From an uncultured Bacteroidota bacterium (GTDB lineage Bacteria > Bacteroidota > Bacteroidia > Bacteroidales > WCHB1-69), in the NCBI GenBank assembly GCA_902770735.1, contig CACXUB010000010.1, positions 1-49,734 of the forward strand: a stretch of 49,734 nt of DNA. The letters are read 5' to 3'. This document shows, piece by piece, positions 15,686-35,329 of the stretch. The stretch's first letter is position 1, and every line of letters starts with the position of its first letter. Below the pieces are notes generated by a model that saw only the letters and a list, made by a program, of their open reading frames with translations, ran no database searches and was not told the origin of the DNA. The position numbers and the translations under genes were made by a program.

Positions 15686-15732
15686 TGCTACTCGCAGAAA
15701 AATCCCCTATTTTCCATTTTTCCCTATTTTTG
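15686..15732 (+). promoter_or_regulatory. Palindrome-28-TAnnTTTG promoter of the DUF2779 gene
   Basis: The palindrome-like TGCTACTCGCA at 15686-15696 is followed after exactly 28 nt by TATTTTTG at 15725-15732. No -33 TTTG element is evident. One of seven copies of this arrangement in the window. Confidence 0.8.
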
Positions 15733-15741
15733 CCGCGTCAT

Positions 15742-15762
15742 TTAATTCTTAATTCTTAATTC
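15742..15762. repeat. Three exact copies of TTAATTC in the 5' leader
   Basis: A 7-nt word repeated three times without change, ending 3 nt before the start codon of the DUF2779 gene. Confidence 0.85.
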
Positions 15763-15765
15763 GTC

Positions 15766-17274
15766 ATGTCTGGTCTTTCAAAATCCAAATACACCAATTT
15801 CCGCAAGTGCCCGAAATGCCTTTGGCTGGGCACATATAAGCCGGAAGAACAAGTTGTTGACTCCTCCATGCAGGCACGATTCGATACCGGCACCAGCGTG
15901 GGCGAACTCGCCAAGGGGCTGTTCGGCCCCTACACTGATGTCACCACCAAGACGCCCGACGGGCGTCTCGACATCAAGGCGATGCAGGCCCGCACGCAGC
16001 AGTGTCTCCACGACGGCATCGACAACATCTGTGAGGCGGCATTCTCGTACCGAGGGTGCTACTGCGCGGTGGATGTCCTCCGCAAAACCGACGACGGATA
16101 CGCCATCTACGAGGTGAAAAGCAGCACCTCGGCTGACAAGGAGGTCTATGCGCAGGATGTGGCTTTCCAAAAATGGGTGCTCACCCAGTGCGGTATCACC
16201 GTCACGGGCACCTATCTCGTCTGCATCAACAACCAATATGTGCGGAATGGCGCGCTGGATATCCACCAACTGTTCAGCATCAATGACATTTCGGAGGCGG
16301 TGGCGGTGGAATACCCGCAGGTGGCTGCCAACTGCAAGGCAGCCAAAGCGGTGCTGGACAATCCTGCGGAACCGGCCGTGCCCATCGGACCGCATTGCCA
16401 CGAGCCCTATGGTTGTGGGTTTATGAGCTACTGTATGCGCCAATGTGGTATCCCCGACAATGAACCCACTGTTTTTGATCTTTACAGAGGATCGTTTGAC
16501 AAGCAACTGGAATATGTGCAAAACGGCATCGTCACATTTCCCGACATTGTCAAATCCGGCATCAAACTTACGTCTATGCAGAAAATGCAGGTGGACTGCA
16601 CGATACACGGCACCGCGCACATCGACAAAGTCGCATTGCGCGAATTCCTGAACACGTTGAGTTATCCGATATACCATCTGGACTTCGAGACGATGCAACC
16701 CATTGTCCCACCCTTCGATGACACACGTCCCTACCGGCAGATTCCGTTCCAGTACTCGCTGCACATTGAACACGCCGACGGCACGTTGGAGCACAGGGAG
16801 TTCTTGGGCAACAGTGTGGACGACCCGCGGCGGGCGCTGGCCGAACAGCTCTGCCGCGACATTCCTGCGGACGCCTGTGTGACCGCTTACAACAAGAAAT
16901 TCGAATGCGGCCGTCTCAGCGAGTTGGCGGATACCTTTCCGGATTTAAGTGCGCACCTGTTGAGCATCAGCAACCATATCATCGACCTGCTGACGCCGTT
17001 CCAGAAAGGATATTGTTACTATCCGGCGATGGGTGACGGGTTTTCCATCAAGGCGGTGTTGCCTGCCCTCTTTCCCAGTGACCCCGACTTGGACTATCAC
17101 AACCTGGATGGTTCGGTACACAACGGTGGCGAGGCGATGGACATCTACCCGCGCATCAAGGATATGCCGGCCGACGAGGCCGCCGCTGCCCGCGAGGCCC
17201 TGCTCCGCTACTGCGAACTCGACACCTTCGCGATGGTGAAGGTACTGTCGAAGCTGCGGGAGCTGGCGAAGTGA
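15766..17274 (+). CDS. DUF2779 protein: Cas4-like nuclease fused to DEDD exonuclease-like domain
   Basis: A 502-aa protein. The N-terminal half is a Cas4/RecB-type PD-(D/E)XK nuclease: an early CPKC pair (residues 15-18), the catalytic AIYEVKSSTS near residue 113, and a later cysteine cluster (HCHEPYGCGFMSYC, near 206-221) that could bind an Fe-S cluster. The C-terminal half is the DUF2779 RNase H-like domain, with YHLDFET near residue 303, TAYNKKFECGRL near 371 and RYCELDTFAMV near 480, the three positions of a DEDD exonuclease site. It probably degrades DNA or RNA; the cellular role is unknown. It is controlled by the palindrome-type promoter and followed by a hairpin. Confidence 0.9.
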   Translation: MSGLSKSKYTNFRKCPKCLWLGTYKPEEQVVDSSMQARFDTGTSVGELAKGLFGPYTDVTTKTPDGRLDIKAMQARTQQCLHDGIDNICEAAFSYRGCYCAVDVLRKTDDGYAIYEVKSSTSADKEVYAQDVAFQKWVLTQCGITVTGTYLVCINNQYVRNGALDIHQLFSINDISEAVAVEYPQVAANCKAAKAVLDNPAEPAVPIGPHCHEPYGCGFMSYCMRQCGIPDNEPTVFDLYRGSFDKQLEYVQNGIVTFPDIVKSGIKLTSMQKMQVDCTIHGTAHIDKVALREFLNTLSYPIYHLDFETMQPIVPPFDDTRPYRQIPFQYSLHIEHADGTLEHREFLGNSVDDPRRALAEQLCRDIPADACVTAYNKKFECGRLSELADTFPDLSAHLLSISNHIIDLLTPFQKGYCYYPAMGDGFSIKAVLPALFPSDPDLDYHNLDGSVHNGGEAMDIYPRIKDMPADEAAAAREALLRYCELDTFAMVKVLSKLRELAK

Positions 17275-17301
17275 CCTATGGTTTTCATGCCGTCCCATAG
17301 G
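17275..17301 (+). terminator. Hairpin after the DUF2779 gene
   Basis: CCTATGG (17275-17281) and CCATAGG (17295-17301) can pair around a 13-nt loop just beyond the stop codon. No T run follows, so the terminator call is tentative. Confidence 0.4.
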
Positions 17302-17319
17302 GGATTGGGGTGCGTTATT

Positions 17320-17366
17320 TGCTACTAGCAAAAAACGCACCCCGATTTCATTTCTTCCTATTTTTG
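17320..17366 (+). promoter_or_regulatory. Palindrome-28-TAnnTTTG promoter of the 59-aa gene
   Basis: The perfect palindrome TGCTACTAGCA (extended by T and A on its two sides) at 17320-17330, then exactly 28 nt, then TATTTTTG at 17359-17366. Confidence 0.8.
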
Positions 17367-17393
17367 CCGCGTCAAACCAATAAAATTGAAGAA

Positions 17394-17573
17394 ATGGAAA
17401 AGAACAATCTCAAAGAAGAGGAGTTGAACACGTATGAATGCGAAGTGTATCTTTCACACTGCGCCTGTATCACCAAGTATGTCAAGGCCAAAACACTTGA
17501 AGCCGCCATCGCCTATTTGGAGAAAAAGTACCCGGAGGCGACCTGCGTTATAGAAGCGGACCACTGGAGGTAG
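17394..17573 (+). CDS. Small protein of unknown function (59 aa)
   Basis: The ATG at 17394 is the first start after the promoter's -7 box. The product is acidic at its N-terminus (NNLKEEELNTYECEVYLSHC), contains three cysteines in the YECEVYLSHCACI stretch and a later ATCVIEADHW. I know no family for it. The pattern suggests a compact alpha/beta protein rather than a membrane peptide. It is expressed alone from a palindrome-type promoter; a GC-rich folded stretch follows. Coding is supported by the promoter and a sensible reading frame, not by a known domain. Confidence 0.55.
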   Translation: MEKNNLKEEELNTYECEVYLSHCACITKYVKAKTLEAAIAYLEKKYPEATCVIEADHWR

Positions 17574-17579
17574 TGGGAG

Positions 17580-18030
17580 CTCGCTCACTCAGCTGTGTGC
17601 CCTTGCGGGTAGGAGGTTCCGCTCAACGCTTACGCGTCTTGCGGAATGGTGTAGCGCGCTAGGGAAAGAAAAGGGAAAAGGCGGGCGGCGTTCGGACCAG
17701 ATCCGGCCACGGACTTATCTCCCTTAACCCCGTCCGGCGGCGCGCACCATTCCGTTTGGCCAGACTGAGGGTGCTACATTCGCGAAAGCAGTCCGTTAGG
17801 ACTGCGGGGGTTGGTAGCTGGGTAACGGAGACATTGTTGTTTCCCGCAGGCTGTCCCGGGTCGCGATGTTCGCGGCGCGGGGGAAAGTCCCGGGCGAGGG
17901 AATTGGGTGGTTCGCCGCGAAACGGGGAGAAGGTTCGGACGGGCGTGCGAGAGGGATTGAAGCCTGATGTCGCGTAGGAACCGATGTTTCTAACGTTGCC
18001 GTAAAAATCACTGACGCTTGGAAGCGTCGC
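17580..18030 (+). ncRNA. GC-rich, strongly folded non-coding region
   Basis: About 450 nt without a convincing ORF but with many helices. A 15-bp stem with one bulge pairs 17642-17659 with 17740-17754 (CGGAATGGT with ACCATTCCG; GCGCGC with GCGCGC). A perfect hairpin GCAGTCC-gtta-GGACTGC lies at 17788-17805. CGCGGCG pairs with CGCCGCG at 17871-17877 and 17913-17919, enclosing a smaller hairpin. GACGCT-TGGA-AGCGTC closes the region at 18013-18028. I do not recognise an RNA family. It could be a structured RNA or the folded end of a mobile element. The strand is assumed from the neighbours. Confidence 0.4.
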
Positions 18031-18041
18031 CCACTAAGCTT

Positions 18042-18088
18042 TGCTACTAGCAAAATCACAGACGACCCCCATATTAATTGTATTTTTG
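18042..18088 (+). promoter_or_regulatory. Palindrome-28-TAnnTTTG promoter of the broken small gene
   Basis: The perfect palindrome TGCTACTAGCA at 18042-18052, exactly 28 nt, then TATTTTTG at 18081-18088. The 95-nt leader can fold (CCTCG with CGAGG around 18122-18151). Confidence 0.8.
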
Positions 18089-18183
18089 CGCCATCATATC
18101 TTCGGATGCTGTCTTATGGAGCCTCGCAGGGTCTGAAGGTGTGACGAGGAAGAGTGTAAACAGAGGTTCCCGATAGAAAAAAG

Positions 18184-18909
18184 ATGACTATTTTGCAAAA
18201 ACCAAATGCGACGGTAGGGCAGATCGTGAAAGACCTGGAACAGATTGTGGAGAAGAAGCTGGGCATCTTCCTGGAGTACAGTTACGACGGCGATGATATG
18301 TACGTGGAAGGCATCAAACTGCGCAAGGACATTGCCATATTGGAAACCACCGGCAAGAAGAAGCGCGCGGTCACGGCGGAAGACCTCCTGGCGATGTTTC
18401 GCTTGCTGGACGTATCACTCGGAGTAGTGATACAATATGATTGGGGGATGTTGAACTTTGAGCCATTCTAAGACGGTTCTATCTTCAAGTACGACGAGGA
18501 AGAGGATTTTTGCCAGTTTACGATGGACAGAGATGTGCGACTCCTCACCACGCAACAGATTGAGGCCGAATTGAAAAAGGTTGATAAGGAAGGATTCCTC
18601 GATTTCAAGGTGGTGCCTCAATTGTGGTACGGTAATAAGCTGACTGTATATCGTGCGAATTGTCTGTGGTATGACTATGGCAAACTCTTCCTGTGCCACG
18701 ATGAAGACAATGAATCGGACAGCATCACGGTAGGCGAGCTTTTGGAAAAATTTCCTGATTGTGCCGAGTTTATGGTACGGGTAAACGGGAAGTTCTATAC
18801 CGTCGAAGTGGATGAAAATGGACGCTTCTTCAGTTTTCCGAAGTTAGGGAATGAGACTCTTTTTGCCATCCACCTTGGCGAGATGGTGTTTGACCCGAAT
18901 GAGATGTAG
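18184..18909 (+). pseudogene. Small unknown gene interrupted by an in-frame TAA
   Basis: The frame opens at the ATG at 18184, gives 95 codons ending FEPF, hits TAA at 18469-18471, and continues in the same frame with DGSIFKYDEEEDFCQF into a further 128-codon open stretch to 18909. The two halves together would make about 241 aa. The first half looks like a compact alpha/beta module (KLGIFLEYSYDGDDMYVEG). The second contains ITVGELLEKFPDCAEFMVRVNGKFYTV, which resembles part of the next gene. A single nonsense change explains the arrangement. Alternatives are two separate genes, with the second starting at 18523, or readthrough. The function is unknown; the palindrome promoter upstream is intact. 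Confidence 0.65.
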
Positions 18910-18977: not shown

Positions 18978-19564
18978 ATGGATAATAAAATTCACAAGTA
19001 CGAATTGTACACGGCAGACACCACGAATATCTGCGTAAAGTCCCGGGTTATGTGGATGAAGATGAGTTGGTGTCAAAAGATGTGACCTTGGGAGAGATCC
19101 TTAAACACGAATTGGCTGATGTCAAAGACCTTAAGTGGGAAATGAGAGTCGATACAAAAAACAAGGAAAAGTTTTATCTGCAGGTAAAAGGTTGCGATAA
19201 AGTGCCGGTAGGCAATAAATACGAGCGCATTGTCGGCTTGCCGACTCACTATGTGGATTGGTATTGTAAGGTGAACTCGGATACTATCAACGAAGATATT
19301 TCAGAAAAGACATTTCCTGATGTGGACTGGAAAACGGTCTCTGCGGAAGAGATTGACAGACGTCTGAAGGAATATTTCCTTTCTCGCAAAATATACTTTT
19401 CCGAAGAAGAAGCCTTCAACAGTCTGCCGAATGAGCTGGTGTTGAACCTGCGTTCGGGAGGCTCCATCACGCCATACGACAAGTATGGTTATCAAATAGT
19501 GAACATCAGCGCATACGGCACTAATTACGACAAAGGTGTGTTTGTCCATATCAGAAGAGAATAA
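18978..19564 (+). pseudogene. Small unknown gene with a frameshift near its start
   Basis: The ATG at 18978 opens MDNKIHKYELYTADT, after which the frame is lost. A second frame supplies HHEYLRKVPGYVDEDELVSKDVTLGEIL and continues open to 19564. The switch falls around 19013-19027 and no slippery heptamer is visible there, so a one-base indel is the simplest reading. VTLGEILKHELADVKDLKWEMRV resembles the ITVGELLEKF region of the preceding gene, so the two are probably distant relatives. A downstream start (GTG at 19052) could still give a 170-aa product. Directly after the stop, ATG TAA followed by a hydrophobic frame (EALLFVGLLWLVVTLFGL) to 19650 looks like a third damaged small ORF. Confidence 0.6.
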
Positions 19565-19746: not shown

Positions 19747-19802
19747 CTAACTGCTAACTGCTAACTGCTAACTACTAACTGCTAACTGCTAACTACTAAC
19801 TC
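19747..19802. repeat. Eight copies of a 7-nt word (CTAACTG / CTAACTA)
   Basis: Exactly eight consecutive 7-nt units, five CTAACTG, two CTAACTA and a last CTAACTC, with no indel. The last unit runs into the stop codon of prfH. Confidence 0.9.
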
Positions 19803-20424
19803 ACAAATCCCCCTTGAACTTCTTCACCGGATTCCCCCGCTCGAGCGTGTTGTGGTTCATCCAGACGTCGCGCTCGCGCTGGGCTCTCGCGGCTTCGTGG
19901 TCGGCGGCGAGGCGCATCAGCAGCCGCTCTTTCGCCAACTGCTTGTTGCGCATCTGCGATCGCTCGTCGGAGGCTGTCACGCTGAGACCCGTGGGCAGGT
20001 AGGTGGCCCGAACCGCCGTCTCCACCTTGTTGACGTTCTGCCCGCCCGGACCGGAGGCGCGGTGCGTCTCATAGACGATCTGCCGCTCATCGACCTGCTG
20101 CGCCTGCATCGGGGCGATGAAGTGGACCCCCACGAACCAGTTCTTGCGGCGGTGCCACGGACGGAAGGGGTTCTTCTGCGCCACCCACAGCACCGAGCCC
20201 TCCCACGCGGCGGCGAGTGCGGACAACGCCGCCTCGTCGCCCTCCGCCGACAGCGTGGCCGAGAACATACAACCGTTGCTCGGCCCGGGTTCGTAGTCAA
20301 TCAGTTGGCACGAAATGTTTTGGTCTTTGGCCTGATGGATGAGCTTTTCCATCACCAAGACCACCACGCGGCAACACTCCTCGGGGCCGCGACCCGATGT
20401 TATCTGAATATAAGTCTTTTGCAT
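19801..20424 (-). CDS. prfH: Peptide chain release factor-like protein PrfH
   Basis: A 207-aa release-factor homologue with the peptidyl-tRNA hydrolysis motif [18 protein letters not shown] near residues 128-145 but without the codon-recognition domain of RF1/RF2, which is the PrfH layout. It lies 6 bp after rtcB on the same strand. RtcB2-PrfH pairs are reported to act on ribosomes whose 16S rRNA has been cut at the decoding centre, with PrfH releasing the nascent peptide and RtcB resealing the RNA. The pairing here fits that job. A 7-nt repeat tract directly follows the stop. Confidence 0.93.
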
Positions 20425-20430
20425 AATCTT

Positions 20431-21828
20431 CTATTCTTGGTTCATTCTTATGATGCGGGGATGGATCCTCCCCACCACTTTGATTAATGTTTCCGAGGCG
20501 GCCAGCACCTCGTCGATGGATTTGTAGGCGTCTGGGGCCTCCTCGGTGGAGCCGCCCAGCAGCGTGACACCCCGCTGCGCCAACTGCCGGTTGAGGGCGT
20601 AGCGACTGAAGCTGTTTCGCGCCTCCTGCCGCGACATCGCCCTTCCCGCCCCGTGACTGGCCGAGCAGATGGCTTCCTCGCAGCCGAGACCGGTCACCAA
20701 CAGTCCGGCGTCGGTCATGTTGGCAGGGATGATGCCCAACTCGCCCGCGTGCGCCGGGGTGGCACCCTTGCGGTGCACGATTACTTCCGAACCGTCGGTC
20801 AGCGTCTCCCGCCATGCGAAGTTGTGGTGGTTGCTCACGTTGGCTAACGGTTGCAGTCGCATTCCCTGTGCCACGTTCCGGTGTATCAGCTCGTGGCAGA
20901 CCGCCGAGTACTCGCCGGCGATCTCCATGCACTGCCAGTACATCTCGCCCTCCTCGCTGTCGAGGTCGAGCCACGCGAACGGTCCGGCCTCGCGGGGCAG
21001 CCGGCACTGCGCTTTGGCGATGGTCGTGAAGTGCTCGGCGATGGCCGCCCCGAGGCCTCGGCTGCCGGAGTGCGACAGGATGGCCGTATAGCTTCCCGCC
21101 GCTAACGTCAACGGGTTGTTGGCATCTAAATTCACCTCGCAGATATCGACGAAGTGGTTGCCGCCGCCGCTGGTGCCCAACTGCCGGATGGCCTTGTCCC
21201 TCAACTTCTTGAGAACCGGGATGGTGCGCCACTCCTCGCGGTCGAAGAGTGGGTGGTACTGCTTGAACGGCAGCACACCCTCCATCCCGAAGGCGGTGTT
21301 CTCCCACAGCGCTTTCTCGATTCGGCCGTGGTGGTCGCGGATGTGGCTGCCGGGCGCGTCGAGGAGGGTGAGCGACATGCGGCAGCCGATGTCGAGCCCC
21401 ACGGCGTAGGGGAGCACGGCGTTGCGGGTGGCCAGCACGCCGCCCACGGGAAGTCCGTAGCCCGCGTGCGCGTCAGGCATCAGTGCGCCCGCCACGGTGA
21501 CGGGCAGCCGCATGGCGGTCTCCATCTGCCGGAATGCCAGCGGGTCGATGAGGTCGCGTCCGAACACAGCGCAGGGGAGGGGATTCTCCCGCAGGTCGTG
21601 GTGTCGCACGGTCGTCTCTTTCGGCGACAGCAGTTCCGCTAACGCCCGCCAGCGCGGGTTTTGGTGTTGTTTATATTCTTCGGGGTGCGCCACGAAGTCT
21701 TGCAGCAGCGACAAGATCTGTTCGTCGGTGAGGTGTTTGCCCTCCTGCTTCACGAACTCCAACATCCGGCTGCGGAGCACATTGTCGGTGACCCCCATTT
21801 TGGTCAGTTCTTTCTTTAAGTTGCCCAT
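20431..21828 (-). CDS. rtcB: RNA ligase RtcB (PrfH-associated type)
   Basis: A 465-aa RtcB-family 3'-phosphate/5'-OH RNA ligase. Seen motifs are MPDAHAGYGLPVGG near residue 113, the metal-binding Cys in GLDIGCRMS near 145, GTSGGGNHFVDI near 218, SHSGSRGLG near 253 and SHGAGRAMSR near 395, which carries the His that forms the covalent GMP adduct. It joins 2',3'-cyclic phosphate and 5'-OH ends using GTP and Mn2+. The operon with prfH identifies it as the RNA-repair RtcB2 type rather than a tRNA-splicing enzyme. An additional 50-residue N-terminal region precedes the core. Repeat tracts fill the leader. Confidence 0.95.
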   Translation of the reverse strand: MGNLKKELTKMGVTDNVLRSRMLEFVKQEGKHLTDEQILSLLQDFVAHPEEYKQHQNPRWRALAELLSPKETTVRHHDLRENPLPCAVFGRDLIDPLAFRQMETAMRLPVTVAGALMPDAHAGYGLPVGGVLATRNAVLPYAVGLDIGCRMSLTLLDAPGSHIRDHHGRIEKALWENTAFGMEGVLPFKQYHPLFDREEWRTIPVLKKLRDKAIRQLGTSGGGNHFVDICEVNLDANNPLTLAAGSYTAILSHSGSRGLGAAIAEHFTTIAKAQCRLPREAGPFAWLDLDSEEGEMYWQCMEIAGEYSAVCHELIHRNVAQGMRLQPLANVSNHHNFAWRETLTDGSEVIVHRKGATPAHAGELGIIPANMTDAGLLVTGLGCEEAICSASHGAGRAMSRQEARNSFSRYALNRQLAQRGVTLLGGSTEEAPDAYKSIDEVLAASETLIKVVGRIHPRIIRMNQE

Positions 21829-22306: not shown

Positions 22307-23521
22307 ATGAGAGTGAAGCCGTATGTCCCTGATCCCGAGAACGATGTGTTTTTGAATAGCTACGACAACGAGATTCCGTTGGCGTGCAATGTCATCTATT
22401 ATGTGGAAAGCGCGGAAAACGAGCCGTTGAATGCAGCCATGCGCGATTTGGCGAAGCAAGACATCACGCTGTTGGATGACGCAAAAATCCAGCCATATCC
22501 GTTTGGACTTCAGTATGTTGCGCAGTCCGATCTGGATGAAGAAACCCTTCGCGCAGCCTTGATGCCCGAATATGGCGAAACGCTGACGGAGGAGACCGTC
22601 GGTAACTTCCGTCGCTGCTTGTCGGACGGTCAGGGCGGCACGCTGGTGGCCCGCTGTCTGCCGATATTCTCCAGCGGCGACTTTTTCGAGGACGACAACA
22701 CTGTCTGCACCTTCCCGGGGTTCCGTCTCACCGCCCCTGAGAAGGCCGCAGGGAAAGTTGCGTGGTTCGCCCGTGAGGCCGCCGAACGGAACTTCTATCG
22801 TCTGACCGGTGAATCCTACCAAGACTATATCAATCCTCCGGCGCGTGCTCGGGAATCCCGGTCGGGATACGGGGGATTTGGAATGGGCTTTATCACCCGG
22901 GAAAAGTCCAAGCAGGAAATTACCGAAGATATGCAACGTCGAGCCGAGGCATTGTCGGACTGGATTGTCAAGAACATCCAAGATGACAACGTGGCTATCT
23001 CTGTTTTGGACCTGGTGCAGAAACAGTTGCGCAACAAGGGAAAATTGAAGGTGCCCTGCAAGATTAAAGTCAAGGACAAGAGCATCTACCGGATGCTTCC
23101 CAATAACGAGCTGAAAAAGTTGTCAATCGGAAGGGGCGCCATCCCCAGGATGCTGTACGTTTTCTACCTGATTCAGATCAAGCGTGCGGCAAAGGATGCC
23201 CGCCAGCCAAGGAATATCGCGCAAGTGAATCTCGTGGATTATAAAGACGATTTGTTGCACATTTACAAGAATATCGGTTCCAACTGGGATGCCGACATGC
23301 ACAACATCGAGTCCGTATGGGACAAAACCAATGGCACTTTTTCGAGTGCCCTGTGGTCCATCCGCAACTGTTTCGAAGACATTTTTGATGTAAACAGTCT
23401 GCTGCCCAAGTGTTACACCATAGAGATTGTGGACGAAGACAAGATGGGCAGGAGTCTGTACGGCATCCAGCTCGACCCTGACGACATTGAGTTGGGGTGG
23501 CCGTATGACGGGATGGTGTAA
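22307..23521 (+). CDS. Protein of unknown function with the shared C-terminal domain (paralogue of the 27.8-kb gene)
   Basis: A 404-aa soluble protein. The first 200 residues (CNVIYYVESAENEPLNAAMR, FPGFRLTAPEKAAGKVAWF) match nothing I know; a Gly/Arg/Ser-rich linker (ESRSGYGGFGMGF) sits near residue 190. The last 160 residues align with the gene at 27819 in the pattern LKK-GRG-LYVF-QI-RA-KD, DYK-L--IY-N, then KCY-IEI---D--G---YGI-L-PDD--L-WP. This makes a recurring domain of unknown function; basic patches suggest nucleic-acid binding, which is inference. A palindrome-controlled AAA+ gene follows 87 bp downstream. Confidence 0.7.
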   Translation: MRVKPYVPDPENDVFLNSYDNEIPLACNVIYYVESAENEPLNAAMRDLAKQDITLLDDAKIQPYPFGLQYVAQSDLDEETLRAALMPEYGETLTEETVGNFRRCLSDGQGGTLVARCLPIFSSGDFFEDDNTVCTFPGFRLTAPEKAAGKVAWFAREAAERNFYRLTGESYQDYINPPARARESRSGYGGFGMGFITREKSKQEITEDMQRRAEALSDWIVKNIQDDNVAISVLDLVQKQLRNKGKLKVPCKIKVKDKSIYRMLPNNELKKLSIGRGAIPRMLYVFYLIQIKRAAKDARQPRNIAQVNLVDYKDDLLHIYKNIGSNWDADMHNIESVWDKTNGTFSSALWSIRNCFEDIFDVNSLLPKCYTIEIVDEDKMGRSLYGIQLDPDDIELGWPYDGMV

Positions 23522-23534: not shown

Positions 23535-23581
23535 TGCTACTAGCAGAAATCAACCCCCTGTCCGTTGATTTCCGACTTTTG
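23535..23581 (+). promoter_or_regulatory. Palindrome-28-TAnnTTTG promoter of the AAA+ gene
   Basis: The perfect palindrome TGCTACTAGCA (extended by C and G) at 23535-23545, exactly 28 nt, then the weaker box GACTTTTG at 23574-23581. Confidence 0.75.
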
Positions 23582-23608: not shown

Positions 23609-25348
23609 ATGAGAGATAACAAGAATTTCAACGCCCTCAAGACCTTGACAGAGGTCGCCAAACTTATGGAAAATTCCACCGACAGGATGATCCGACTTTA
23701 CGATCCCGAGTTCACGGCTTCCGGGAATGCCGACGAACGCTCTAAACGGAAACCGGACAACCAGCTCATCAGCGCGATGGAACCGCAACTGCGCGAACAG
23801 GTGGACCAGCTCGGCCGCTTCCTGAAGACCACCCCGCTGGAAACCCTGCTCTTCGTGGCGGTCTTCGCCATCCAGCTGATCAACAACAGCAGCGTCGACA
23901 CCCGCGACATCAGCCGCTACCTCGACATCAACGGGCTGGACTTCCTGCCGCTGAAGCCCGTGCTGCATTCGCTGCTGAAAAAACGCCTGATCCGCGTGGT
24001 GAACCGCCGTCGCAGCACCAACGACTATATCGTGGCCGATGTCGTGGAGCACTCGCTCCTCCTAAACAAACCGGTGAAACGGATGAAAGCGCAGGAGATG
24101 GACCAGTTCCAGTTCTGCAACCTCGTCTCCGGACTCATCGAATGCCGAAGCAACGAGGACTTTGACACGCGTGAGCTTTTCATCCAGGTGGAAAGGGAGG
24201 AGGAAGCCAACTCTCACATCAAATTAGTGAAAGAGTTGCGGAAACTTTCGCTCGACATTGAGGACAGAACCCTCTTTTATGAAATCTGTGACGATTTCGT
24301 CCGCGACCGCCGGCGCAACACGGGGGTGGAATGCACTCTGAACGACATCTACGACAATCTGCGCCATCGTTTCGACATTGCCAAGAACATCATGAGCCAA
24401 AACCATCCGCTCATGCAGTCAGAGCTGGCGGAACTGCTTCCCGCCAAATTCCTCGCCGAAGCGGAGATTACGTTGACCGAAAAGGGCAAACGGCTGCTGT
24501 TGGACGAGGACTACGACCTGTTCTGCGGCAAGGGTGGTACCGACAAACGGCTGACCGCACCCGACAAGATTCCCGTCCGCGAACTATTTTTCAGCGAGGA
24601 GCTGTCGGCAGACCTCGACTTCGTGAAGGAGAGTCTGCAGGAGGAGAAATTCGTGGAGCTGCAGAAGCGGTTGGAGGAAAATTCGCTGCCCAAGGGTGTG
24701 GCCATGCTCTTCCACGGGCTGCCCGGCACAGGCAAGACCGCCGCGGTCGATATGATCGCCAAGGCCACCGGCCGCAGCGTCTATCACGTCGATATCGCCG
24801 CCTCCAAGACCTGCTGGTTCGGCGAGAGCGAGAAGCTCTTCAAGAGAATCTTCACCGACTACCGCCGCATGTGCGAGACCGAGGAACGCAAGCCCATCCT
24901 GCTGTTCAACGAGGCCGACGCGCTCTTCAGCAAGCGCCGCGACGTCGATTCCGGCAGCTGCGCCCAGACCGAGAACGCCCTGCAGAACATCCTGTTGGAG
25001 GAGATGGAGACGCTGGACGGCATCCTCATCGCCACCACCAACCTGTGCGACAACTTCGACAGTGCCTTCGAGCGCCGCTTCCTCTTCAAGGTGAAGTTCG
25101 GGCAGCCCAACACCGATGCTAAGAAGTCCATTTGGAAGAGCAAACTCCCGTGGCTCACGGAAGAACAGTGCGGCCTGTTGGCGACGAAGTACGACCTCTC
25201 GGGCGGCGAAATTGACAACATCGTGCGCAAGAGCATGATGGAGGAGGTGCTGAGCGGCAACCGTCCCGATGTGGCGATGTTAGAGGCCTGGTGCCGCGGT
25301 GAGAAGCTGACGCGGAAGGGCGGGAAAGCGATTGGGTTTGCGTGCTGA
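23609..25348 (+). CDS. AAA+ ATPase with N-terminal winged-helix-like region
   Basis: A 579-aa protein; ATG 23609 is the first start after the -7 box. The N-terminal half (residues 1-300) is helical, with a possible winged-helix stretch (FLPLKPVLHSLLKKRLIRVVNRRRSTNDYIV near 105-140; a broken quote of the region). The AAA+ core has Walker A GLPGTGKT near 370, a pore-loop-like KTCWFGESEKLF near 393, Walker B LLFNEADALF near 430 with Asn where Asp is usual, sensor 1 IATTN near 475 and an arginine-finger region FERRF near 487. It resembles the AAA+ group that remodels or unfolds proteins (katanin/ClpA-like substrate loop). Substrate unknown. Confidence 0.85.
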   Translation: MRDNKNFNALKTLTEVAKLMENSTDRMIRLYDPEFTASGNADERSKRKPDNQLISAMEPQLREQVDQLGRFLKTTPLETLLFVAVFAIQLINNSSVDTRDISRYLDINGLDFLPLKPVLHSLLKKRLIRVVNRRRSTNDYIVADVVEHSLLLNKPVKRMKAQEMDQFQFCNLVSGLIECRSNEDFDTRELFIQVEREEEANSHIKLVKELRKLSLDIEDRTLFYEICDDFVRDRRRNTGVECTLNDIYDNLRHRFDIAKNIMSQNHPLMQSELAELLPAKFLAEAEITLTEKGKRLLLDEDYDLFCGKGGTDKRLTAPDKIPVRELFFSEELSADLDFVKESLQEEKFVELQKRLEENSLPKGVAMLFHGLPGTGKTAAVDMIAKATGRSVYHVDIAASKTCWFGESEKLFKRIFTDYRRMCETEERKPILLFNEADALFSKRRDVDSGSCAQTENALQNILLEEMETLDGILIATTNLCDNFDSAFERRFLFKVKFGQPNTDAKKSIWKSKLPWLTEEQCGLLATKYDLSGGEIDNIVRKSMMEEVLSGNRPDVAMLEAWCRGEKLTRKGGKAIGFAC

Positions 25349-25424: not shown

Positions 25425-25471
25425 CGCTACTCGCAAAATAACCCGTATTTCAAAAAAACGAACTATTTTTG
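25425..25471 (+). promoter_or_regulatory. Palindrome-28-TAnnTTTG promoter of the YqiA-like gene
   Basis: CGCTACTCGCA at 25425-25435 (one outer base differs from the consensus), exactly 28 nt, then TATTTTTG at 25464-25471. Confidence 0.75.
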
Positions 25472-27158: not shown

Positions 27159-27599
27159 ATGAATCATTATACAGGAAACATCACCCCGGGGAAGGACATC
27201 ATCTTTGTGTTCGGGAGCAACCCGGAAGGGAAACATGGCGCGGGCTCGGCCAAGGTCGCCCTCCAGAAGTTCGGCGCCAAGTACGGCAAGGGCGACGGCC
27301 TGCACGGACAATCGTACGCCTTGATAACCACCGAGATGCGCAAAGGGTGGCCGCGCATCACCTTGGAGCAGATCACCGACAACGTGCGTCGCCTGTACGA
27401 GGTGGCGAGGAAGATGCCGGACAAGCGGTTCATGGTGGCCTACCGCAATCAGCCCGACCAACGGACCCTGTGCGGCTACACGGGCGCGCAGATGATGAAA
27501 TGCTTCCTTTCCGCCGGCGAAATCCCCGACAACATCTGGTTCAGCGAAGAGTGGTACAAGGCCATGAATTGCGAGACAAATAACCCCAAAACCTGCTAA
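27159..27599 (+). CDS. Small protein of the FVFGSN/GAGSAK phage-type family (macrodomain-like)
   Basis: A 146-aa protein. The ATG at 27159 is chosen because the conserved opening follows directly: IIFVFGSNPEGKHGAGSAKVALQ near residues 14-35. This pattern is common in phage and mobile-element proteins with a possible macrodomain-like fold that binds ADP-ribose-type ligands; I am not certain of the fold. The middle LITTEMRKGWPRI and end MVAYRNQP also fit that family. Its final Cys codon and TAA stop lie inside the next gene's palindrome operator, so the downstream promoter is embedded in this gene's 3' end. Confidence 0.75.
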   Translation: MNHYTGNITPGKDIIFVFGSNPEGKHGAGSAKVALQKFGAKYGKGDGLHGQSYALITTEMRKGWPRITLEQITDNVRRLYEVARKMPDKRFMVAYRNQPDQRTLCGYTGAQMMKCFLSAGEIPDNIWFSEEWYKAMNCETNNPKTC

Positions 27600-27640
27600 T
27601 AGCAGAAAACGTGACTGCCTGAATATTCATCGTATTTTTG
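27594..27640 (+). promoter_or_regulatory. Palindrome-28-TAnnTTTG promoter before a truncated ORF
   Basis: The palindrome TGCTAATAGCA (extended by C and G) at 27594-27604, exactly 28 nt, then TATTTTTG at 27633-27640. The TAA inside the palindrome is the stop codon of the upstream gene. Confidence 0.8.
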
Positions 27641-27661: not shown

Positions 27662-27808
27662 ATGGATAAAGAAAAAGTCAAAGACTATCTGTGGAACTAC
27701 TTCTTCCCCATCACCTCCGCCTCGGAAGAAGAACGACGGCTGGTGCGTGGGAAGCTGAAAATAAAAGTTTTCCTTTTTTTGCCGTGTAAATGTAGTTTAA
27801 CAAAATAA
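27662..27808 (+). pseudogene. Truncated small ORF behind an intact palindrome promoter
   Basis: The ATG at 27662 opens MDKEKVKDYLWNYFFPITSA followed by SEEERRLVRGKLK. The sequence then passes abruptly into A/T-rich promoter-like DNA, which is read as IKVFLFLPCKCSLTK before TAA at 27806. The first 33 residues look like the start of a real protein; the rest does not. I read it as the 5' stub of a deleted or replaced gene whose promoter survives. A genuine 48-aa protein is the alternative. Confidence 0.5.
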
Positions 27809-27818
27809 TTTTGCCCAA

Positions 27819-28625
27819 ATGGAATCAGATGCACAGAAAAAATTAGATGTTAAGAAGTCGGAGGAGATGGAAAGTGCCGGCAACCTCCAAGAATCGCATG
27901 ACGACGAAGTGTCCAAGCCGTGGAACGGCGTGTTTTACACCGAAGGCGATGATGAACCCATTATTGTTGATTCAAAGATCAGAACTATGGGGGATTTGGA
28001 ACGTTTGGTGGATGAGTCAATGGTTAAAAATCAAATGGTGGAAGAGTTGTTGGAATGGGTCTCCATACGCACAAAGGGGGATGTTGACCTTGCGGCCACG
28101 TTGATGAAAAAGGGGTTGCGGAGGCTGAACAACAAAAACAAACAGAAGGATCCGTGTCGTATTATCGTGAAAGAAAATGGAATCTTTGTCGAACTTCCCG
28201 ACCAAAAACTCAAAAAGGTGACTTTCGGACGGGGAAACTTGTCGAAAACGCTGTATGTCTTTTTCCTTCGCCAAATTGTGCGAGCCACGAAGGACAACAC
28301 GATTCCGGGCTGTCTCTCGCAATTTGAGATGGGGGATTACAAGGAGGAACTGATGTTCATTTACCAAAACGTCAGCGGCAAGCATGGTGACATCCAGGAG
28401 GTGGAATCGTGGTTGGAGAAGGGCACGGTGTCCAACAACTTCGCGAACGCCACCGCCTCCGTCCGGAAGTATTTCGACAAGCTTTTCGACAACTATGTCA
28501 TCAAATACAAATGGGAGAAATGCTACAGTATTGAAATCAAGGGGACGGACCGTCGCGGCAACCCGCGCTACGGCATAAAACTCACCCCGGACGATTTCGT
28601 GCTGAAGTGGCCGTTTGAGGTGTGA
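27819..28625 (+). CDS. Protein of unknown function, paralogue of the 22.3-kb gene
   Basis: A 268-aa soluble protein. The N-terminal 110 residues are acidic and helical. The rest aligns with the C-terminal domain of the 404-aa gene: ELPDQKLKKVTFGRG, KTLYVFFLRQIVRATKD, GDYKEELMFIYQN, KCYSIEIKGTDRRGNPRYGI and LTPDDFVLKWPF. A TAATTTTG box (27806-27813) lies only 5 nt before the ATG, so either the transcript is almost leaderless or transcription comes from the promoter at 27.6 kb. No catalytic residues stand out. A folded GC-rich stretch follows directly after the stop. Confidence 0.7.
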   Translation: MESDAQKKLDVKKSEEMESAGNLQESHDDEVSKPWNGVFYTEGDDEPIIVDSKIRTMGDLERLVDESMVKNQMVEELLEWVSIRTKGDVDLAATLMKKGLRRLNNKNKQKDPCRIIVKENGIFVELPDQKLKKVTFGRGNLSKTLYVFFLRQIVRATKDNTIPGCLSQFEMGDYKEELMFIYQNVSGKHGDIQEVESWLEKGTVSNNFANATASVRKYFDKLFDNYVIKYKWEKCYSIEIKGTDRRGNPRYGIKLTPDDFVLKWPFEV

Positions 28626-29104: not shown

Positions 29105-30196
29105 ATGGCAAATAATACTTTACAAAAGGCAAAAGCAGCCAAGCAAGACGAGTTCTATACGCAACTCGTCGACATCCAAAACGAAATGAACGCTTATTTG
29201 GATTATAATCCTGATGTGTTCCGTGGAAAAACCATCCTTCTTCCTTGTGACGATCCAGAATGGAGCAACTTTACCCTGTTCTTTGCACAAAATTTTGAGC
29301 GATTCGGGTTGAAAAAGTTAATATCCACATCGTATGCCATTGAAAGCAAATACAATCTGTATGGATCTCAATTGTCATTGTTTGAAACAGATTTTGAGAA
29401 AACTTCAAAACAATACGATGCTAAAAAATCACAATCTCGCGGGAAAATATTTGTCCTTGACAAGGATTGCAATGCCGACGGATGCATCAATTACCATGAT
29501 TTGAAATGGGAATATCTAAAAGGTGATGGCGATTTTCGTTCGGATGAAGTAAAAGCATTGCGTGATGAGGCCGACATAATCATTACCAATCCGCCATTTT
29601 CTCTATTTAGAGAGTTTATGGCTTGGTTACTCATAGCAAAAAAACAATTTGTTATTATAGGTAGTATGATGAGCATATCTTACAAGGAGGTTTTCCCCCA
29701 TATTAAAAACAACAAAATATGGTTAGGAAGATCGACTGGAGGAAAAGAGTATAAAAAACCAGATGGTTCTTTCCAAAAAATGGGGAACACATGCTGGTTT
29801 ACCAATATTGACCATGGCCGAAGACATCAACCATTAACATTGATGTCAACAGCAGACGTTTTCAAATATAGCAAACACAAGGATATACGAGAAATGAACC
29901 ATTTTTACCATTATGAAAACTATGATGCTATAGATATTCCAAGGGTTGATGCTATTCCCTGTGATTACAATGGTGTAATGGGAGTGCCCACTTCTTTTCT
30001 ATACCAATATTGCCCTGATCAATTTGAGATAATTGGAATTGCAGAAGGAGATTCTGGAAAAGAACTTGGTTTGCAACCCTATGATCGTAATCTTAAGAAA
30101 TTAAACAAAAGTCTTAGGGATGGTCAACTGTTTTATTTATTGGAAAATGGCATTCCGAAAAAACCATTTGCACGTATCCTCATTCGCAAAAAATAA
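29105..30196 (+). CDS. EcoRI-type adenine-specific DNA methyltransferase
   Basis: A 363-aa protein of the M.EcoRI-like family. ATG 29105 precedes the family's usual start (KAAKQDEFYTQLVDIQNEM). Seen features are TILLPCDDPEWSNF near residue 40, the catalytic NPPF in IIITNPPFSLFREFM near residue 160, and NTCWFTNIDHGRRHQPLTLM near 225. It transfers a methyl group from SAM to adenine N6. The next gene, 20 bp away, is a DUF262-HNH protein, an association typical of EcoRI-like methylases in defence loci. Codon use and the A/T-rich sequence differ from the surrounding GC-rich genes, suggesting recent transfer of this pair. It is preceded by a folded RNA leader. Confidence 0.92.
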   Translation: MANNTLQKAKAAKQDEFYTQLVDIQNEMNAYLDYNPDVFRGKTILLPCDDPEWSNFTLFFAQNFERFGLKKLISTSYAIESKYNLYGSQLSLFETDFEKTSKQYDAKKSQSRGKIFVLDKDCNADGCINYHDLKWEYLKGDGDFRSDEVKALRDEADIIITNPPFSLFREFMAWLLIAKKQFVIIGSMMSISYKEVFPHIKNNKIWLGRSTGGKEYKKPDGSFQKMGNTCWFTNIDHGRRHQPLTLMSTADVFKYSKHKDIREMNHFYHYENYDAIDIPRVDAIPCDYNGVMGVPTSFLYQYCPDQFEIIGIAEGDSGKELGLQPYDRNLKKLNKSLRDGQLFYLLENGIPKKPFARILIRKK

Positions 30197-30216
30197 TCCA
30201 CTAAATAAATATCAAT

Positions 30217-31380
30217 ATGAAAACCACATTAAAAACGAACATTGCCGTGCGTGACATTTGCAACGGATTTGTTTACAATGAATTAGAAGAAAAAGGTTTG
30301 TATGGTCTTTCTGGCCAATTAGTCATTCAGCCGGAATACCAACGCAACTACATTTATGGCGATGGTAAAAAAGACGTGGCCGTTATCGAATCACTTCTCA
30401 AAGAGTACCCACTCGGTCTTATTTATTTCAATGAACGCGAGGATGGTATGCTGGAAGTGCTTGATGGGCAGCAACGTATAACCAGCATTGGACGTTTTGT
30501 GACAGACAAATTCCCGATCGTTGATGCACATGGCGTGCCGCAGTATTTCAGTAGTCTGCCCGCCAATCTCCAAGATTTGATTATGGACAGCAAACTCTTG
30601 ATTTATGTTTGCAAGGGTGGAGAACAAGAAATCAAGGAGTGGTTCAAAACCATTAATATCGAAGGAAAACCACTAAAGCCTCAGGAACTTCTTAATGCGA
30701 TCTATTCAGGCTCGTTTGTCACACTTTGTAAAGAGGTGTTCAGCAAACGCAACCAGCCTATTATGCAGAAATGGCAGTCGTATATAAAAGGTGAAGTGAA
30801 CCGACAGGATATCTTTGAAAGGGCTTTGGATTGGGTAAGTGGTGGCAATATTGAGGACTATATGAGTCGTCACCGCCACGACACCAACATAAATCCAATC
30901 AAACTCCATTTCGAAAGCGTCATTCAGTGGATAGAGAACGTGTTTCCCACTTATTATGATCAAATGAAAGGCTTGGAGTGGGGCCGCCTCTATGACACAT
31001 ACCATACCAACCCTTACAGTCCTTCCGCTGTGGATGCAGAAGTCGCCCGACTGTTTGCTGATGACAGCGTGGAAGACAAAAAGGGAATTTTTGAATATGT
31101 GTTAGGAGGAAAGCAAGACACTAAACTTTTGAAAATCAGAATTTTTAGTAACGCTGACAAATCAACGGTTTATCACCGGCAAACTGCCGCGGCAAAGGCT
31201 GCTGGCGAGTCCAACTGTCCGTTGTGCGCTCTCGGTCATGATGCCACCCGCACCAAAATATGGAAACTCGAGGAGATGGATGCTGACCACGTGACAGCAT
31301 GGAGCAAGGGCGGCGCTACCAGCATCGCCAACTGCCAGATGCTGTGCAAAACGCATAACAGGGCGAAAGGGAACAAATAG
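30217..31380 (+). CDS. DUF262 protein with C-terminal HNH nuclease
   Basis: A 387-aa protein. The DUF262 (GmrS/ParB-like nucleotidase) domain holds the hallmark [13 protein letters not shown] near residue 82. The C-terminus is an HNH nuclease: paired Cys in NCPLCALG near 332, [19 protein letters not shown] near 353-371, then [16 protein letters not shown]262-HNH proteins include type IV-like and other nucleases that attack phage DNA and often need nucleotide hydrolysis. Together with the EcoRI-type methylase it would form a modification-dependent or restriction-modification unit. A strong terminator follows. Confidence 0.92.
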
Positions 31381-33222: not shown

Positions 33223-33237
33223 CAATTTTTTGTTGCC

Positions 33238-33265: not shown

Positions 33266-33272
33266 CATGAAT

Positions 33273-33977
33273 TCATACCCCTACCAGTCTCCCCAACAGC
33301 TGCGCCATCAGCTCGGAAACGCTCCGTTTTTTGTCATGGCTCGTTTTCAAGTACAGCGTGCCCTTCTCCATATATACCCGCTTGTTCACCTCCAGCATCA
33401 ACGACTGGTACCGGAATGCGCACTCCGGTGCCTCCGAATTGCTGTACGGGTAGTTGATGCCGACCGAGTAGCCGTTCTCCTCGAAAAGGTTTACGACAAA
33501 CTCCACCGTCTCCTTGTCTGGCTTCGACCAATCCTCGTTGAAGCCGATGCAGATGTCCACATTGCCTTGCTCCTCGGGGAAGGAGTGGCAGTCGAGAAGG
33601 AGGGCGTTCTCACAGAGCGTGCTCTTCAGTCTGTGCTGATGGCCGCGCCATAGGTTGTAAAGCTGTTTCTCGCATTGTTTCGGGATGTGACGGTGATAGT
33701 CTCCGAAACGCCGGTAGAGGATGCCTTGCCCCTCCTTCTCCAACGGATCGTTCCACAGCCGCTCGGCATCTACTACAAAACGCGAATAAGGGAAACGTAC
33801 GGGACGGATCCGCTCGTTGCGGAAACCATGAAACAGGAAGTCGGTGTGCCAGTCGGTGAGACGGAACACCACCTCGTTGATGAAGCGGGCGTCGATATCC
33901 CAGAAACTGAGTTCGTGGTCGTACAGCCCTTCAATGGAGGCGTGCGGCTCGTGGAGCACGATGATTGGATATGCCAT
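33273..33977 (-). CDS. N-formylglutamate amidohydrolase family protein
   Basis: A 234-aa protein of the HutG-like N-formylglutamate amidohydrolase family. Matches include the start IIVLHEPHAS, the DIDARFINEV region near residue 27, RFPYSRFVVDAERLWNDP near 60, and the metal-site LLLDCHSFPEE near 126 followed by DICIGFNED. The family hydrolyses N-formylglutamate to formate and glutamate in histidine degradation, but no other hut genes are present here, so the substrate may differ. It follows the coiled-coil gene on the same strand by 6 bp and is probably co-transcribed with it, from the divergent promoter near 35.25 kb. Confidence 0.88.
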   Translation of the reverse strand: MAYPIIVLHEPHASIEGLYDHELSFWDIDARFINEVVFRLTDWHTDFLFHGFRNERIRPVRFPYSRFVVDAERLWNDPLEKEGQGILYRRFGDYHRHIPKQCEKQLYNLWRGHQHRLKSTLCENALLLDCHSFPEEQGNVDICIGFNEDWSKPDKETVEFVVNLFEENGYSVGINYPYSNSEAPECAFRYQSLMLEVNKRVYMEKGTLYLKTSHDKKRSVSELMAQLLGRLVGV

Positions 33978-33983
33978 AGTTCT

Positions 33984-35084
33984 TTATTTTTGATGTGACT
34001 GTTCTGCCGCCGTTCCTTTTTTTACAAATTCCACCACCTCGTCAGATGTGATGAACTCCGTGTCGTCCGGCCGGTTGAAGAGTTCAGGAAGCAGCTCTGA
34101 CAATTCCTTCTTCGCCATGCATTCAAGTTCCTGTTGTAGATTGAAAATCCTTTTTTTCAACGGAGTGAGCTTGTGTTGATAGAACATCCTGGTGATTTCA
34201 CCGTGGCGGAATTGCTGCTTGAGCTGCTGCTTCTGCAGATTCAGCGATTCCAGTACTTCCTTGCCCTCTTCCTGCTTTCGGCAGTAGTCGGCATACCAGT
34301 TCGTGAGTGCCTCGCGTTTGCATTCGAGGTGGGCGTTCAACAGGGTGACCCGCATCTTCTCCATCGCCTTGGCATCGGCCTCGCGGGTGTCCAGTATCTC
34401 CTGCCGCAATACCTGATTCTCGCGTTGAAGAAGATACAACTTTCTTTCTGTCAGACTGTCGCCTTTGTCGTTGGCCTCTAACAGCTTCACCACCTCTTCT
34501 AACGAGTAAGCTTCGTAACGCACCTTGGCCTCATCGTATCGCGTGTTGATATTCGTAAATGGACCCCAAATAGCTCTGAACGGGTTGGGCAGGTTCTCCG
34601 ACCGGCATTCTCCGTTAGCATTGACGATGCCGCAGCAGTTCATTCCCGACAGCGGGCTCCCCGCGATGTAATATACGAGCCAGGTGTCGTTGTGGAGGCG
34701 GCTGATGATGGCGGGAATGCACGTCATCCACCATTCGACATAGACACCCAATGTAGGGCGTCGGAAGCCACTGGTTCCGATGTAAGCGAGGCCGCTTTGT
34801 ACGGGAACGGGGGCAAGGAACATGCGACTGTCGTTCAGGATTTTCTCGCGGTGGTCGAGGAAAAAGAAGGCGCGGTCGGTGAAGAATTTCACGGCCTGTT
34901 TGCGCTGCTCCTCCAGTTCCGGCGGGATGGGCTTCACGACGGGTTTCCGCCTGCCGACAGAGAGATACTGTCCCGTGGTGTCCAGCTTCATCCGGTTGTC
35001 GATGGGCTGTGAGAGTTCCACTTTCGGATAGCACAGTAGTTCGCGACCACTGAGCAAAGTGATTTGATGGATTTGCTTCATCAT
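33984..35084 (-). CDS. Unknown protein with a C-terminal coiled coil, divergent from the AddB/AddA-like pair
   Basis: Start taken at ATG 35084 (MMKQIHQITLLSG), the first in-frame ATG downstream of the -7 box. The frame stays open farther upstream through the promoter, which is probably chance. The 366-aa product has a conserved-looking centre (TLGVYVEWWMTCIP, HNDTWLVYYIAGSPLSGMN, NPFRAIWGPF) that matches no family I know. A long charged helical stretch follows (near residues 200-330, rich in E, K, Q, R and L), a probable coiled coil. It shares the palindrome at 35283 with the nuclease-helicase operon, which suggests a joint function; the amidohydrolase-like gene follows by 6 bp. Confidence 0.7.
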   Translation of the reverse strand: MMKQIHQITLLSGRELLCYPKVELSQPIDNRMKLDTTGQYLSVGRRKPVVKPIPPELEEQRKQAVKFFTDRAFFFLDHREKILNDSRMFLAPVPVQSGLAYIGTSGFRRPTLGVYVEWWMTCIPAIISRLHNDTWLVYYIAGSPLSGMNCCGIVNANGECRSENLPNPFRAIWGPFTNINTRYDEAKVRYEAYSLEEVVKLLEANDKGDSLTERKLYLLQRENQVLRQEILDTREADAKAMEKMRVTLLNAHLECKREALTNWYADYCRKQEEGKEVLESLNLQKQQLKQQFRHGEITRMFYQHKLTPLKKRIFNLQQELECMAKKELSELLPELFNRPDDTEFITSDEVVEFVKKGTAAEQSHQK

Positions 35085-35246
35085 TCGGTTCCGGTTGCCT
35101 GTACACCGGAAGGTTCTGTGCCGAAGATGAGAAACGCGGTGCCCTTTATCGCTAAAGAACACCGCGTATGGCGGGTTGTTATTTAGCGCGTTTTTTAGAG
35201 AGGTTGGCAATTTGACGTAAATCCGTTCCTCTTTCTCATCCGGCGG

Positions 35247-35254
35247 CAAATATA
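35247..35254 (-). promoter_or_regulatory. -7 element of the coiled-coil gene, 28 nt from the shared palindrome
   Basis: Minus-strand TATATTTG followed by CCG. Exactly 28 nt separate it from the palindrome at 35283-35293, the same spacing as on the other side. Confidence 0.75.
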
Positions 35255-35282
35255 CGAAATTTTTTTTGAAATATCGGTTGTC

Positions 35283-35329
35283 TGCTACTCGCAACAATTT
35301 TTTTTGCATGGGGAAAATGATTATTTTTG
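35283..35329 (+). promoter_or_regulatory. Palindrome-28-TAnnTTTG promoter of the AddB/AddA-like operon
   Basis: TGCTACTCGCA at 35283-35293, exactly 28 nt, then TATTTTTG at 35322-35329. The same palindrome is 28 nt from the divergent -7 box, so it appears to serve both directions. Confidence 0.85.

What the first reader, a model, noticed from the sequence alone, without database searches (positions are those of the whole stretch)
15686..35329. A fixed-geometry promoter class: 11-bp palindrome exactly 28 nt upstream of the -7 box at seven sites
Seen directly: TGCTACTAGCA or a one- to two-base variant occurs at 15686, 17320, 18042, 23535, 25425, 27594 and 35283. In all seven cases exactly 28 nt separate it from TATTTTTG (GACTTTTG at one site). 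In several copies the outer bases change together (T/A or C/G), as expected for a two-fold symmetric protein site. No -33 TTTG element is visible. The genes controlled are a Cas4/DEDD nuclease, a 59-aa protein, a broken gene, an AAA+ ATPase, a YqiA-like hydrolase, a truncated ORF and an AddB/AddA-like operon. Inference: a dimeric regulator, probably an activator contacting RNA polymerase, commands an accessory or defence regulon not known to me.
Basis: partly seen in the sequence, partly recalled or inferred. Interest (0 to 1): 0.92.

Follow-up and report, generated by a model that had tools for sequence, protein, structure and literature searches.

The report
Fixed-spacing operator of gut gene islands
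In some gut Bacteroidales the same short two-fold symmetric DNA site sits at one fixed distance in front of many separate promoters of DNA-repair, nuclease and other accessory genes, which looks like the docking site of a still unidentified switch protein that controls these genes together.

Summary
The core observation holds. All seven sites are in place with exactly 28 nt to the -7 box; 0 of 100 shuffles give the pattern. In the whole 2.8-Mb genome TGCTAHTMGCA occurs at 8 places, 7 in this geometry. In 40 genomes of the genus, with 31 spacings allowed, 45 of 52 listed hits sit at 27 or 28 nt (hand count, listing cut). 20 of 104 family genomes carry the motif. The site at 35283 faces a second -7 box 28 nt away on the other strand. 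Targets include DUF2779, AAA+, UPF0227, PARG, NT5C, DnaB-like, DUF2828 and AddBA; AddB, where tested, is accessory. Best reading: operator of a dimeric activator near -46 on sigma-ABfr-type promoters. Activation is inferred and the regulator was not found; window WYL, S24 and GntR proteins do not follow the motif. One stated detail fails: outer bases do not covary. Only 2 of 8 AddB starts seen have the site directly in front. Homology between relocated copies often stops at the palindrome or the -7 box, so the operator behaves as a replaceable module.

The parts
15686..15696 (+). palindromic operator TGCTACTCGCA; -7 box TATTTTTG at 15725-15732; gene 15766-17274 (DUF2779; weak Cas4 similarity)
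   Evidence: PF11074; Cas4 model E 0.001
17320..17330 (+). operator TGCTACTAGCA; box 17359-17366; 59-aa ORF starting at 17394
18042..18052 (+). operator TGCTACTAGCA; box 18081-18088; ORF 18184-18471, interrupted relative to relatives of 243-244 aa (L042, L087)
23535..23545 (+). operator TGCTACTAGCA; box GACTTTTG 23574-23581; AAA+ ATPase 23609-25348
25425..25435 (+). operator CGCTACTCGCA; box 25464-25471; UPF0227/YqiA-like hydrolase 25538-26230
27594..27604 (+). operator TGCTAATAGCA; box 27633-27640; 48-aa ORF from 27662, shorter than its 162-aa relatives
35283..35293 (.). bidirectional operator TGCTACTCGCA: + strand box TATTTTTG 35322-35329, - strand box TATATTTG 35247-35254
35349..38126 (+). 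AddB-like PDDEXK nuclease, first gene of the AddBA operon
   Evidence: PF12705; found in 8 of 40 genus genomes
38130..41558 (+). AddA-like UvrD helicase
33984..35081 (-). 365-aa protein transcribed away from the 35283 operator; no Pfam family over its cut-off
22307..23521 (+). 404-aa protein of the c0 family (C-terminal domain shared with 27819-28625); candidate partner only
27819..28625 (+). 268-aa c0-family protein; residues 107-268 modelled (mean pLDDT 90.5), no fold match found

Best explanation
The palindrome is the operator of a dimeric DNA-binding protein that works as an activator at otherwise ordinary sigma-ABfr-type promoters (-7 box TAnnTTTG, no clear -33 element). Taking the first T of the box as about -12 (recalled numbering), the core spans about -51 to -41 and is centred near -46, beside the place where sigma region 4 and the alpha C-terminal domains are expected, so the bound dimer could touch RNA polymerase directly. 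This would explain why only 27 or 28 nt are seen and why one site can serve two divergent promoters. Many accessory genes or short operons carry their own copy, so one regulator would switch a dispersed set of nuclease, recombination, nucleotide and unknown genes. Shown: sites, spacing, symmetry, restriction to these promoters, patchy distribution, and that the operator can be present or absent in front of the same gene. Inferred: activation, RNA polymerase contact, a single regulator, and a stress or phage signal.
For: Seven of seven sites at 28 nt; 0 in 100 shuffles. Whole genome: 7 of 8 exact palindromes in this geometry; in relative G032 9 of 11 (two of the nine with one box mismatch, one at 27 nt with TGTTTTTG); in motif-negative G028 none of 5 at 28 nt within 2 mismatches. 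Genus scan with 31 spacings allowed: of 52 listed rows that fit GCTAHTMGCR, 39 at 28, 6 at 27, 7 elsewhere (hand count; listing cut after G029). In the 20 motif-positive genomes 75 of 79 rows at 27/28, reversed-pattern control 7 rows in all (these genomes had been chosen by 27/28 hits). 80 aligned 28-nt sites: invariant or nearly invariant core, symmetric flanks, spacer mostly low in information (27/28 nt was required there, so it says nothing on spacing). Two-way promoters at the window site (28/28), L041 (28/27), L047 (27/27) and L100 (28/27). Same gene with and without operator, shared from the -7 box on: L081 vs L223, 98% over 120 nt. AddB is accessory: 8 of 40 genus genomes, 7 motif-positive.
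Against: No transcription data, so activation is not demonstrated. No regulator identified: window WYL, GntR and S24 proteins do not follow the motif; G017 and G025 carry the motif but gave no WYL hit with the window query. Many sites are orthologous, so counts are not independent. Of 8 AddB gene starts seen, only the window's and G032's have the site directly in front; those of G001, G009 (two), G016, G020 and G004 do not (in G020, G004 and G009:C2 a site lies farther upstream, before another gene or leader). PARG likewise occurs with and without it. Some genomes have one or two sites only (G027, G029, G031, G078, G081) and may lack a regulator.
Confidence: 0.7

Rival explanations
1. The palindrome binds a repressor (LexA-, CI- or TetR-like) that is released on stress.
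For: Bacteroidetes non-canonical LexA proteins bind an 11-bp 3-5-3 palindrome (GGA-N5-TCC), the same size as TGC-N5-GCA (PMC8565304, abstract and passages); AddBA is among the targets.
Against: The site lies about 40 nt above the inferred start at one fixed distance, not over the promoter. In the 13 motif-positive genus genomes S24 hits are absent in 8 and lie in short open frames of 143-177 aa in 5; frames of 213-216 aa are in motif-negative G005, G023 and G028 (whether these carry a DNA-binding domain was not tested).
Confidence: 0.1
2. The palindrome is primarily the end of a mobile single-gene unit (recombination or insertion boundary), and its place in front of promoters is a by-product.
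For: In 13 of 19 pairs that I chose, largely, shared DNA starts 0-11 nt left of the palindrome; in some it ends at or within a few nt of the stop codon, also between genera (L042/L087, L039/L090).
Against: 4 of the 19 pairs run on to the end of the compared 400 nt and 2 start at or below the -7 box; the pairs share members. Operator-less genes of the same loci also show edges at -7 box, start or stop codon, so edges may only mark functional DNA. I saw no common 3' motif by eye; a recombinase or target duplication was not searched for. A recombination site needs no fixed 28-nt distance to a -7 box.
Confidence: 0.1
3. An alternative sigma factor reads the palindrome and box together as one bipartite promoter.
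For: Fixed spacing; no -33 element.
Against: Box and following bases resemble other boxes of the same loci; the upstream element is two-fold symmetric and used in both directions, unlike a sigma -35 element.
Confidence: 0.06
4. Copies of one promoter multiplied by recent duplication, without function of the palindrome.
For: Some spacers are shared by orthologues and duplicates.
Against: Spacers of different genes are largely unrelated while palindrome, spacing and box are kept; found in three genera.
Confidence: 0.04

Closest known systems
Canonical Bacteroidetes sigma-ABfr promoter (TAnnTTTG at -7, TTTG near -33)
   Same: -7 box (consensus from passages of PMC7366714)
   Different: Has an 11-19 bp two-fold symmetric site whose centre lies 34 nt above the box, and no clear -33 element
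Near-palindromic promoter motif PM2 of Bacteroides thetaiotaomicron (PMC7366714, passages)
   Same: A near-palindromic element tied to promoters of a Bacteroidetes, linked there to stress genes
   Different: Reported as elements centred at -10 and -30, not about -46 above a TAnnTTTG box; its sequence is in a figure I could not see, so a relation is not excluded
Class I/II activator-dependent promoters (recalled: CRP, lambda CI at PRM)
   Same: Symmetric operator at a fixed distance that could touch RNA polymerase
   Different: Centre near -46 instead of about -41.5 or -61.5 (recalled values); protein unknown
Non-canonical LexA regulons of Bacteroidetes (PMC8565304, abstract and passages)
   Same: 3-5-3 palindrome architecture; DNA-repair genes as targets
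   Different: Other sequence (GGA-N5-TCC or CTAA-N5-TTAG); repressors with S24 domains, whose presence does not follow the motif
WYL-type DNA-damage activators such as PafBC and SiwR (search listing only)
   Same: Activators of genes answering DNA damage
   Different: The WYL proteins found with the window query do not follow the motif

Membership tests
Bacteroidetes sigma-ABfr promoter | TAnnTTTG -7 box | tested here: met
   6 of 7 window sites exact, 1 with GACTTTTG; TATTTTTG 43, TACTTTTG 12, TATCTTTG 11 of 89 collected sites (where a TTTG box was required)
Bacteroidetes sigma-ABfr promoter | TTTG near -33 | tested here: not met
   0 of 57 at 22-24 nt, 4 of 57 at 21-25 nt; other boxes 11 and 16 of 167
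Activator-dependent promoter with dimer operator | two-fold symmetric site at fixed distance | tested here: met
Activator-dependent promoter with dimer operator | expression depends on site and protein | not testable with these tools
   no expression data
Bacteroidetes LexA (SOS) regulon | GGA-N5-TCC or CTAA-N5-TTAG operator | tested here: not met
   operator is TGCTA-N-TMGCA; motifs from PMC8565304
Bacteroidetes LexA (SOS) regulon | S24 repressor with DNA-binding domain present | tested here: inconclusive
   motif-positive genus genomes: no S24 hit in 8 of 13, short frames of 143-177 aa in 5; domains not examined, MAGs incomplete
WYL-regulated system | WYL protein co-distributed with the regulon | tested here: not met
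   window orthologue (93% or more) in 4 of 13 motif-positive and 7 of 27 motif-negative genomes; G017 and G025 no hit; other WYL families not tested one by one

The most novel reading that the evidence does not exclude
The palindrome is at once the operator of the regulon and the left boundary of mobile one-gene units (operator to stop codon) that pass between genera of gut Bacteroidales: a self-promoted gene-cassette system in which an acquired gene arrives already wired to the same switch.
Probability: 0.08. Interest if true: 0.88.

Novelty: new member of a known kind. Interest (0 to 1): 0.6.

Why it matters
How accessory gene islands of Bacteroidota are regulated is, to my knowledge, little studied. 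Here one precise, searchable DNA signature ties together AddBA, PARG, nucleotidase, ATPase and unknown genes, several without any Pfam family. It gives a direct way to list further members of the set, to fish out the regulator, and to test whether such genes of gut bacteria are switched on together.

Tried and rejected
Regulator candidates. Window WYL protein (3786-4796 -; PF13280): not co-distributed (Fisher p = 1.0). A second WYL family, divergent from the DnaB-like gene in G001 (L201), has other inverted repeats upstream (by eye); hits of like weak identity also occur in motif-negative genomes (not verified as the same family). GntR: 32 of 40 genus genomes, motif-positive or not. S24; hits are if anything rarer in motif-positive genomes (5 of 13 against 20 of 27). 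XRE/HipA-like pairs in L209 and L094 (named by eye): two cases, not followed. c0 family: at E 1e-30 or better in 15 of 103 genomes, 14 motif-positive (the Fisher figure assumes all 20 motif-positive genomes were among the 103); at E 1e-5 25 genomes match, several motif-negative. It lies in the same islands and is often itself behind a site, so linkage may explain this; its domain model (pLDDT 90.5) has no Foldseek match at E 0.001 in PDB or BFVD and no convincing PDB sequence match, so DNA binding is unproven. AAA+ N-terminal region (A2): at E 1e-120 or better 12 genomes, 10 motif-positive; at E 1e-10 37 of 103.

McrBC genes stand beside sites in L095 and L042 but on the upstream side, so I do not count them as targets.

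Distribution. IMG/VR: 2 stretches at 28 nt and 1 at 27; only L213, which precedes an IS1595-like reading frame on a 388-kb contig, resembles the family sites. GTDB: 19 of 70 stretches lie in other taxa as single hits; my rough estimate for chance is about ten. Literature: the literal sites (20 papers, 15 listed, none by title on a bacterial regulator site) and palindromes with TAnnTTTG (2 papers; passages read of one, the other seen in the listing only). Rfam finds only the two tRNAs in the window and nothing in 17500-18200.

Limits of counts. Spacing counts are hand counts; one search's listing was cut. In one search a spacing of 27/28 and a TTTG box were required, 25 loci judged unrelated by title were left out (L149 and L171 among them, which hold island genes), and at least one hit inside a gene (L039, TCAATTTG) was kept. 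The pairs were picked by hand. The output was cut. The binomial figure ignores relatedness and is not used.

Full report
Observation. The seven sites are as described, and the exact pattern appears in 0 of 100 shuffled windows. The palindrome with two mismatches is not enriched, so what matters is the close match together with the distance. Across the genome of the window (2.84 Mb in 233 contigs, 85.5% complete) TGCTAHTMGCA occurs at 8 places; 7 have a -7 box 28 nt downstream (six in the window, one at C5:74592), and the eighth (C175:2292) lies inside an open reading frame. Allowing two mismatches over palindrome and box gives 9 rows: these seven, the CGCTACTCGCA site and the minus-strand reading at 35283; the reversed-pattern control gave 2.

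Relatives. In 40 genomes of the genus, with 15-45 nt allowed after GCTANTNGC, I counted by hand the listed rows that also fit GCTAHTMGCR: 39 at 28 nt, 6 at 27, 7 at other spacings (listing cut after G029). A scan for 27/28 nt found 20 of 104 family genomes in three genera (13 of 40 in the window's genus), with one reversed-pattern control row in all, in G017. With free spacing in these 20 genomes 75 of 79 rows are at 27/28, control 7 rows (the genomes had been selected by such hits). In GTDB r220 the pattern with 28 nt gives 70 stretches, often several per genome: 51 in Bacteroidales, Bacteroidia or Bacteroidetes MAGs whose titles mostly name ruminant or horse gut samples or rumen genome sets (L149 and L171 placed here by gene content), and 19 single hits in other taxa (the tool may leave out records of the window's own genome).

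Anatomy. I collected 89 distinct sites with 27 or 28 nt (81 and 8). Core TGCTA-N-TMGCA, centre mostly C or A; the promoter-proximal half is TGCTA or TGCGA. In 80 aligned sites the flanks are symmetric too (T 55 at -4, T 57 and Y 78 at -2 and -1; R 76, A 69 and A 59 after the core), giving about 19 bp. Most spacer positions carry little information. TTTG at -33 is absent or rare (0 of 57 at 22-24 nt, 4 of 57 at 21-25 nt), but rare in other boxes too (11 and 16 of 167); [quoted passage not shown] One palindrome serves two promoters at 27 or 28 nt each way at window 35283, L041, L047 and L100.

Genes behind the sites. Window: DUF2779, a 59-aa ORF, an interrupted ORF, an AAA+ ATPase (weak similarity to IetA in the ATPase domain), UPF0227, a 48-aa ORF, AddBA and, divergently, a 365-aa protein. 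In relatives: PARG, NT5C, DUF2828 with VWA, DnaB-like, a borderline PDDEXK protein, IS1595 transposase, c0 proteins and several unknowns (families partly named on cluster relatives). AddB occurs in 8 of 40 genus genomes, 7 motif-positive, so it is accessory here; only 2 of 8 AddB starts seen (window, G032) have the site directly in front. RtcB with a PrfH-like protein, an EcoRI-type methylase, a GmrSD/HNH protein, Fic and PARG lie between the window sites without a site of their own. The first site begins 100 nt after tRNA-Gly.

Modularity. The same leader and gene occur with and without the operator, the shared part beginning at the -7 box: L081 vs L223, 98% over 120 nt; the leader of the 365-aa gene in the window vs L202 and L049, 92-99%. 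In 13 of 19 hand-picked pairs homology begins 0-11 nt left of the palindrome, in 4 it fills the compared 400 nt, in 2 it starts at or below the box; in some it ends at the stop codon, also between genera (L042/L087, L039/L090). Operator-less genes show like edges (output partly cut), so I read the edges mainly as a footprint of functional DNA; a true cassette system remains possible.

Mechanism. Fixed distance, two-fold symmetry, a position above the promoter and service to two divergent promoters point to a dimeric activator in contact with RNA polymerase. This is inference: no expression data exist here. The regulator is not identified; what was tested is under Tried and rejected.

Novelty. 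Activator-type operators at fixed distance are a known kind; this site and geometry were not found in print by the searches, which cover open-licence papers only. The near-palindromic PM2 motif of B. thetaiotaomicron sits elsewhere, but I could not see its sequence. I therefore call it a new member of a known kind. On re-checking I lowered confidence slightly (0.72 to 0.70) and interest (0.62 to 0.60), because few AddB genes carry the site themselves and McrC proved not to be a target.

Noticed in passing
window 17594-17768; L045 12417-12652; L081 12624-12816; L082 17776-17970 and 18546-18735; L040 9128-9327: A repeated non-coding element of about 180 nt with a strong hairpin (220-nt fold -86 kcal/mol), no Rfam match; a partial copy in L044 (2027-2084) ends directly before an operator.
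   Followed up: partly
window 19801-21828 (-): RtcB and an RF-1 domain (PrfH-like) protein side by side, as in the described RtcB2-PrfH pair (search listing).
   Followed up: no
L043 4452-5384; L153 795-1721; L213 near 7688: IS1595-like transposase genes have the same operator and spacing in their own promoter, also on a 388-kb IMG/VR contig (family named on L160).
   Followed up: partly
window 22307-23521 and 27819-28625: c0 family: variable N-termini with a shared C-terminal domain of about 150 aa, confident model but no fold match; co-distributed with the motif.
   Followed up: partly
window 29105-31380: EcoRI-type adenine methylase next to a GmrSD/HNH protein that matches a PADLOC type II restriction enzyme model.
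   Followed up: no
window 18184-18909, 19052-19564, 27662-27808: Genes behind or near two operators are interrupted or shortened in the window, while longer relatives exist elsewhere.
   Followed up: no
window 15424-15586: The run of operator-bearing genes begins right after tRNA-Leu and tRNA-Gly, a usual kind of place for integration.
   Followed up: no
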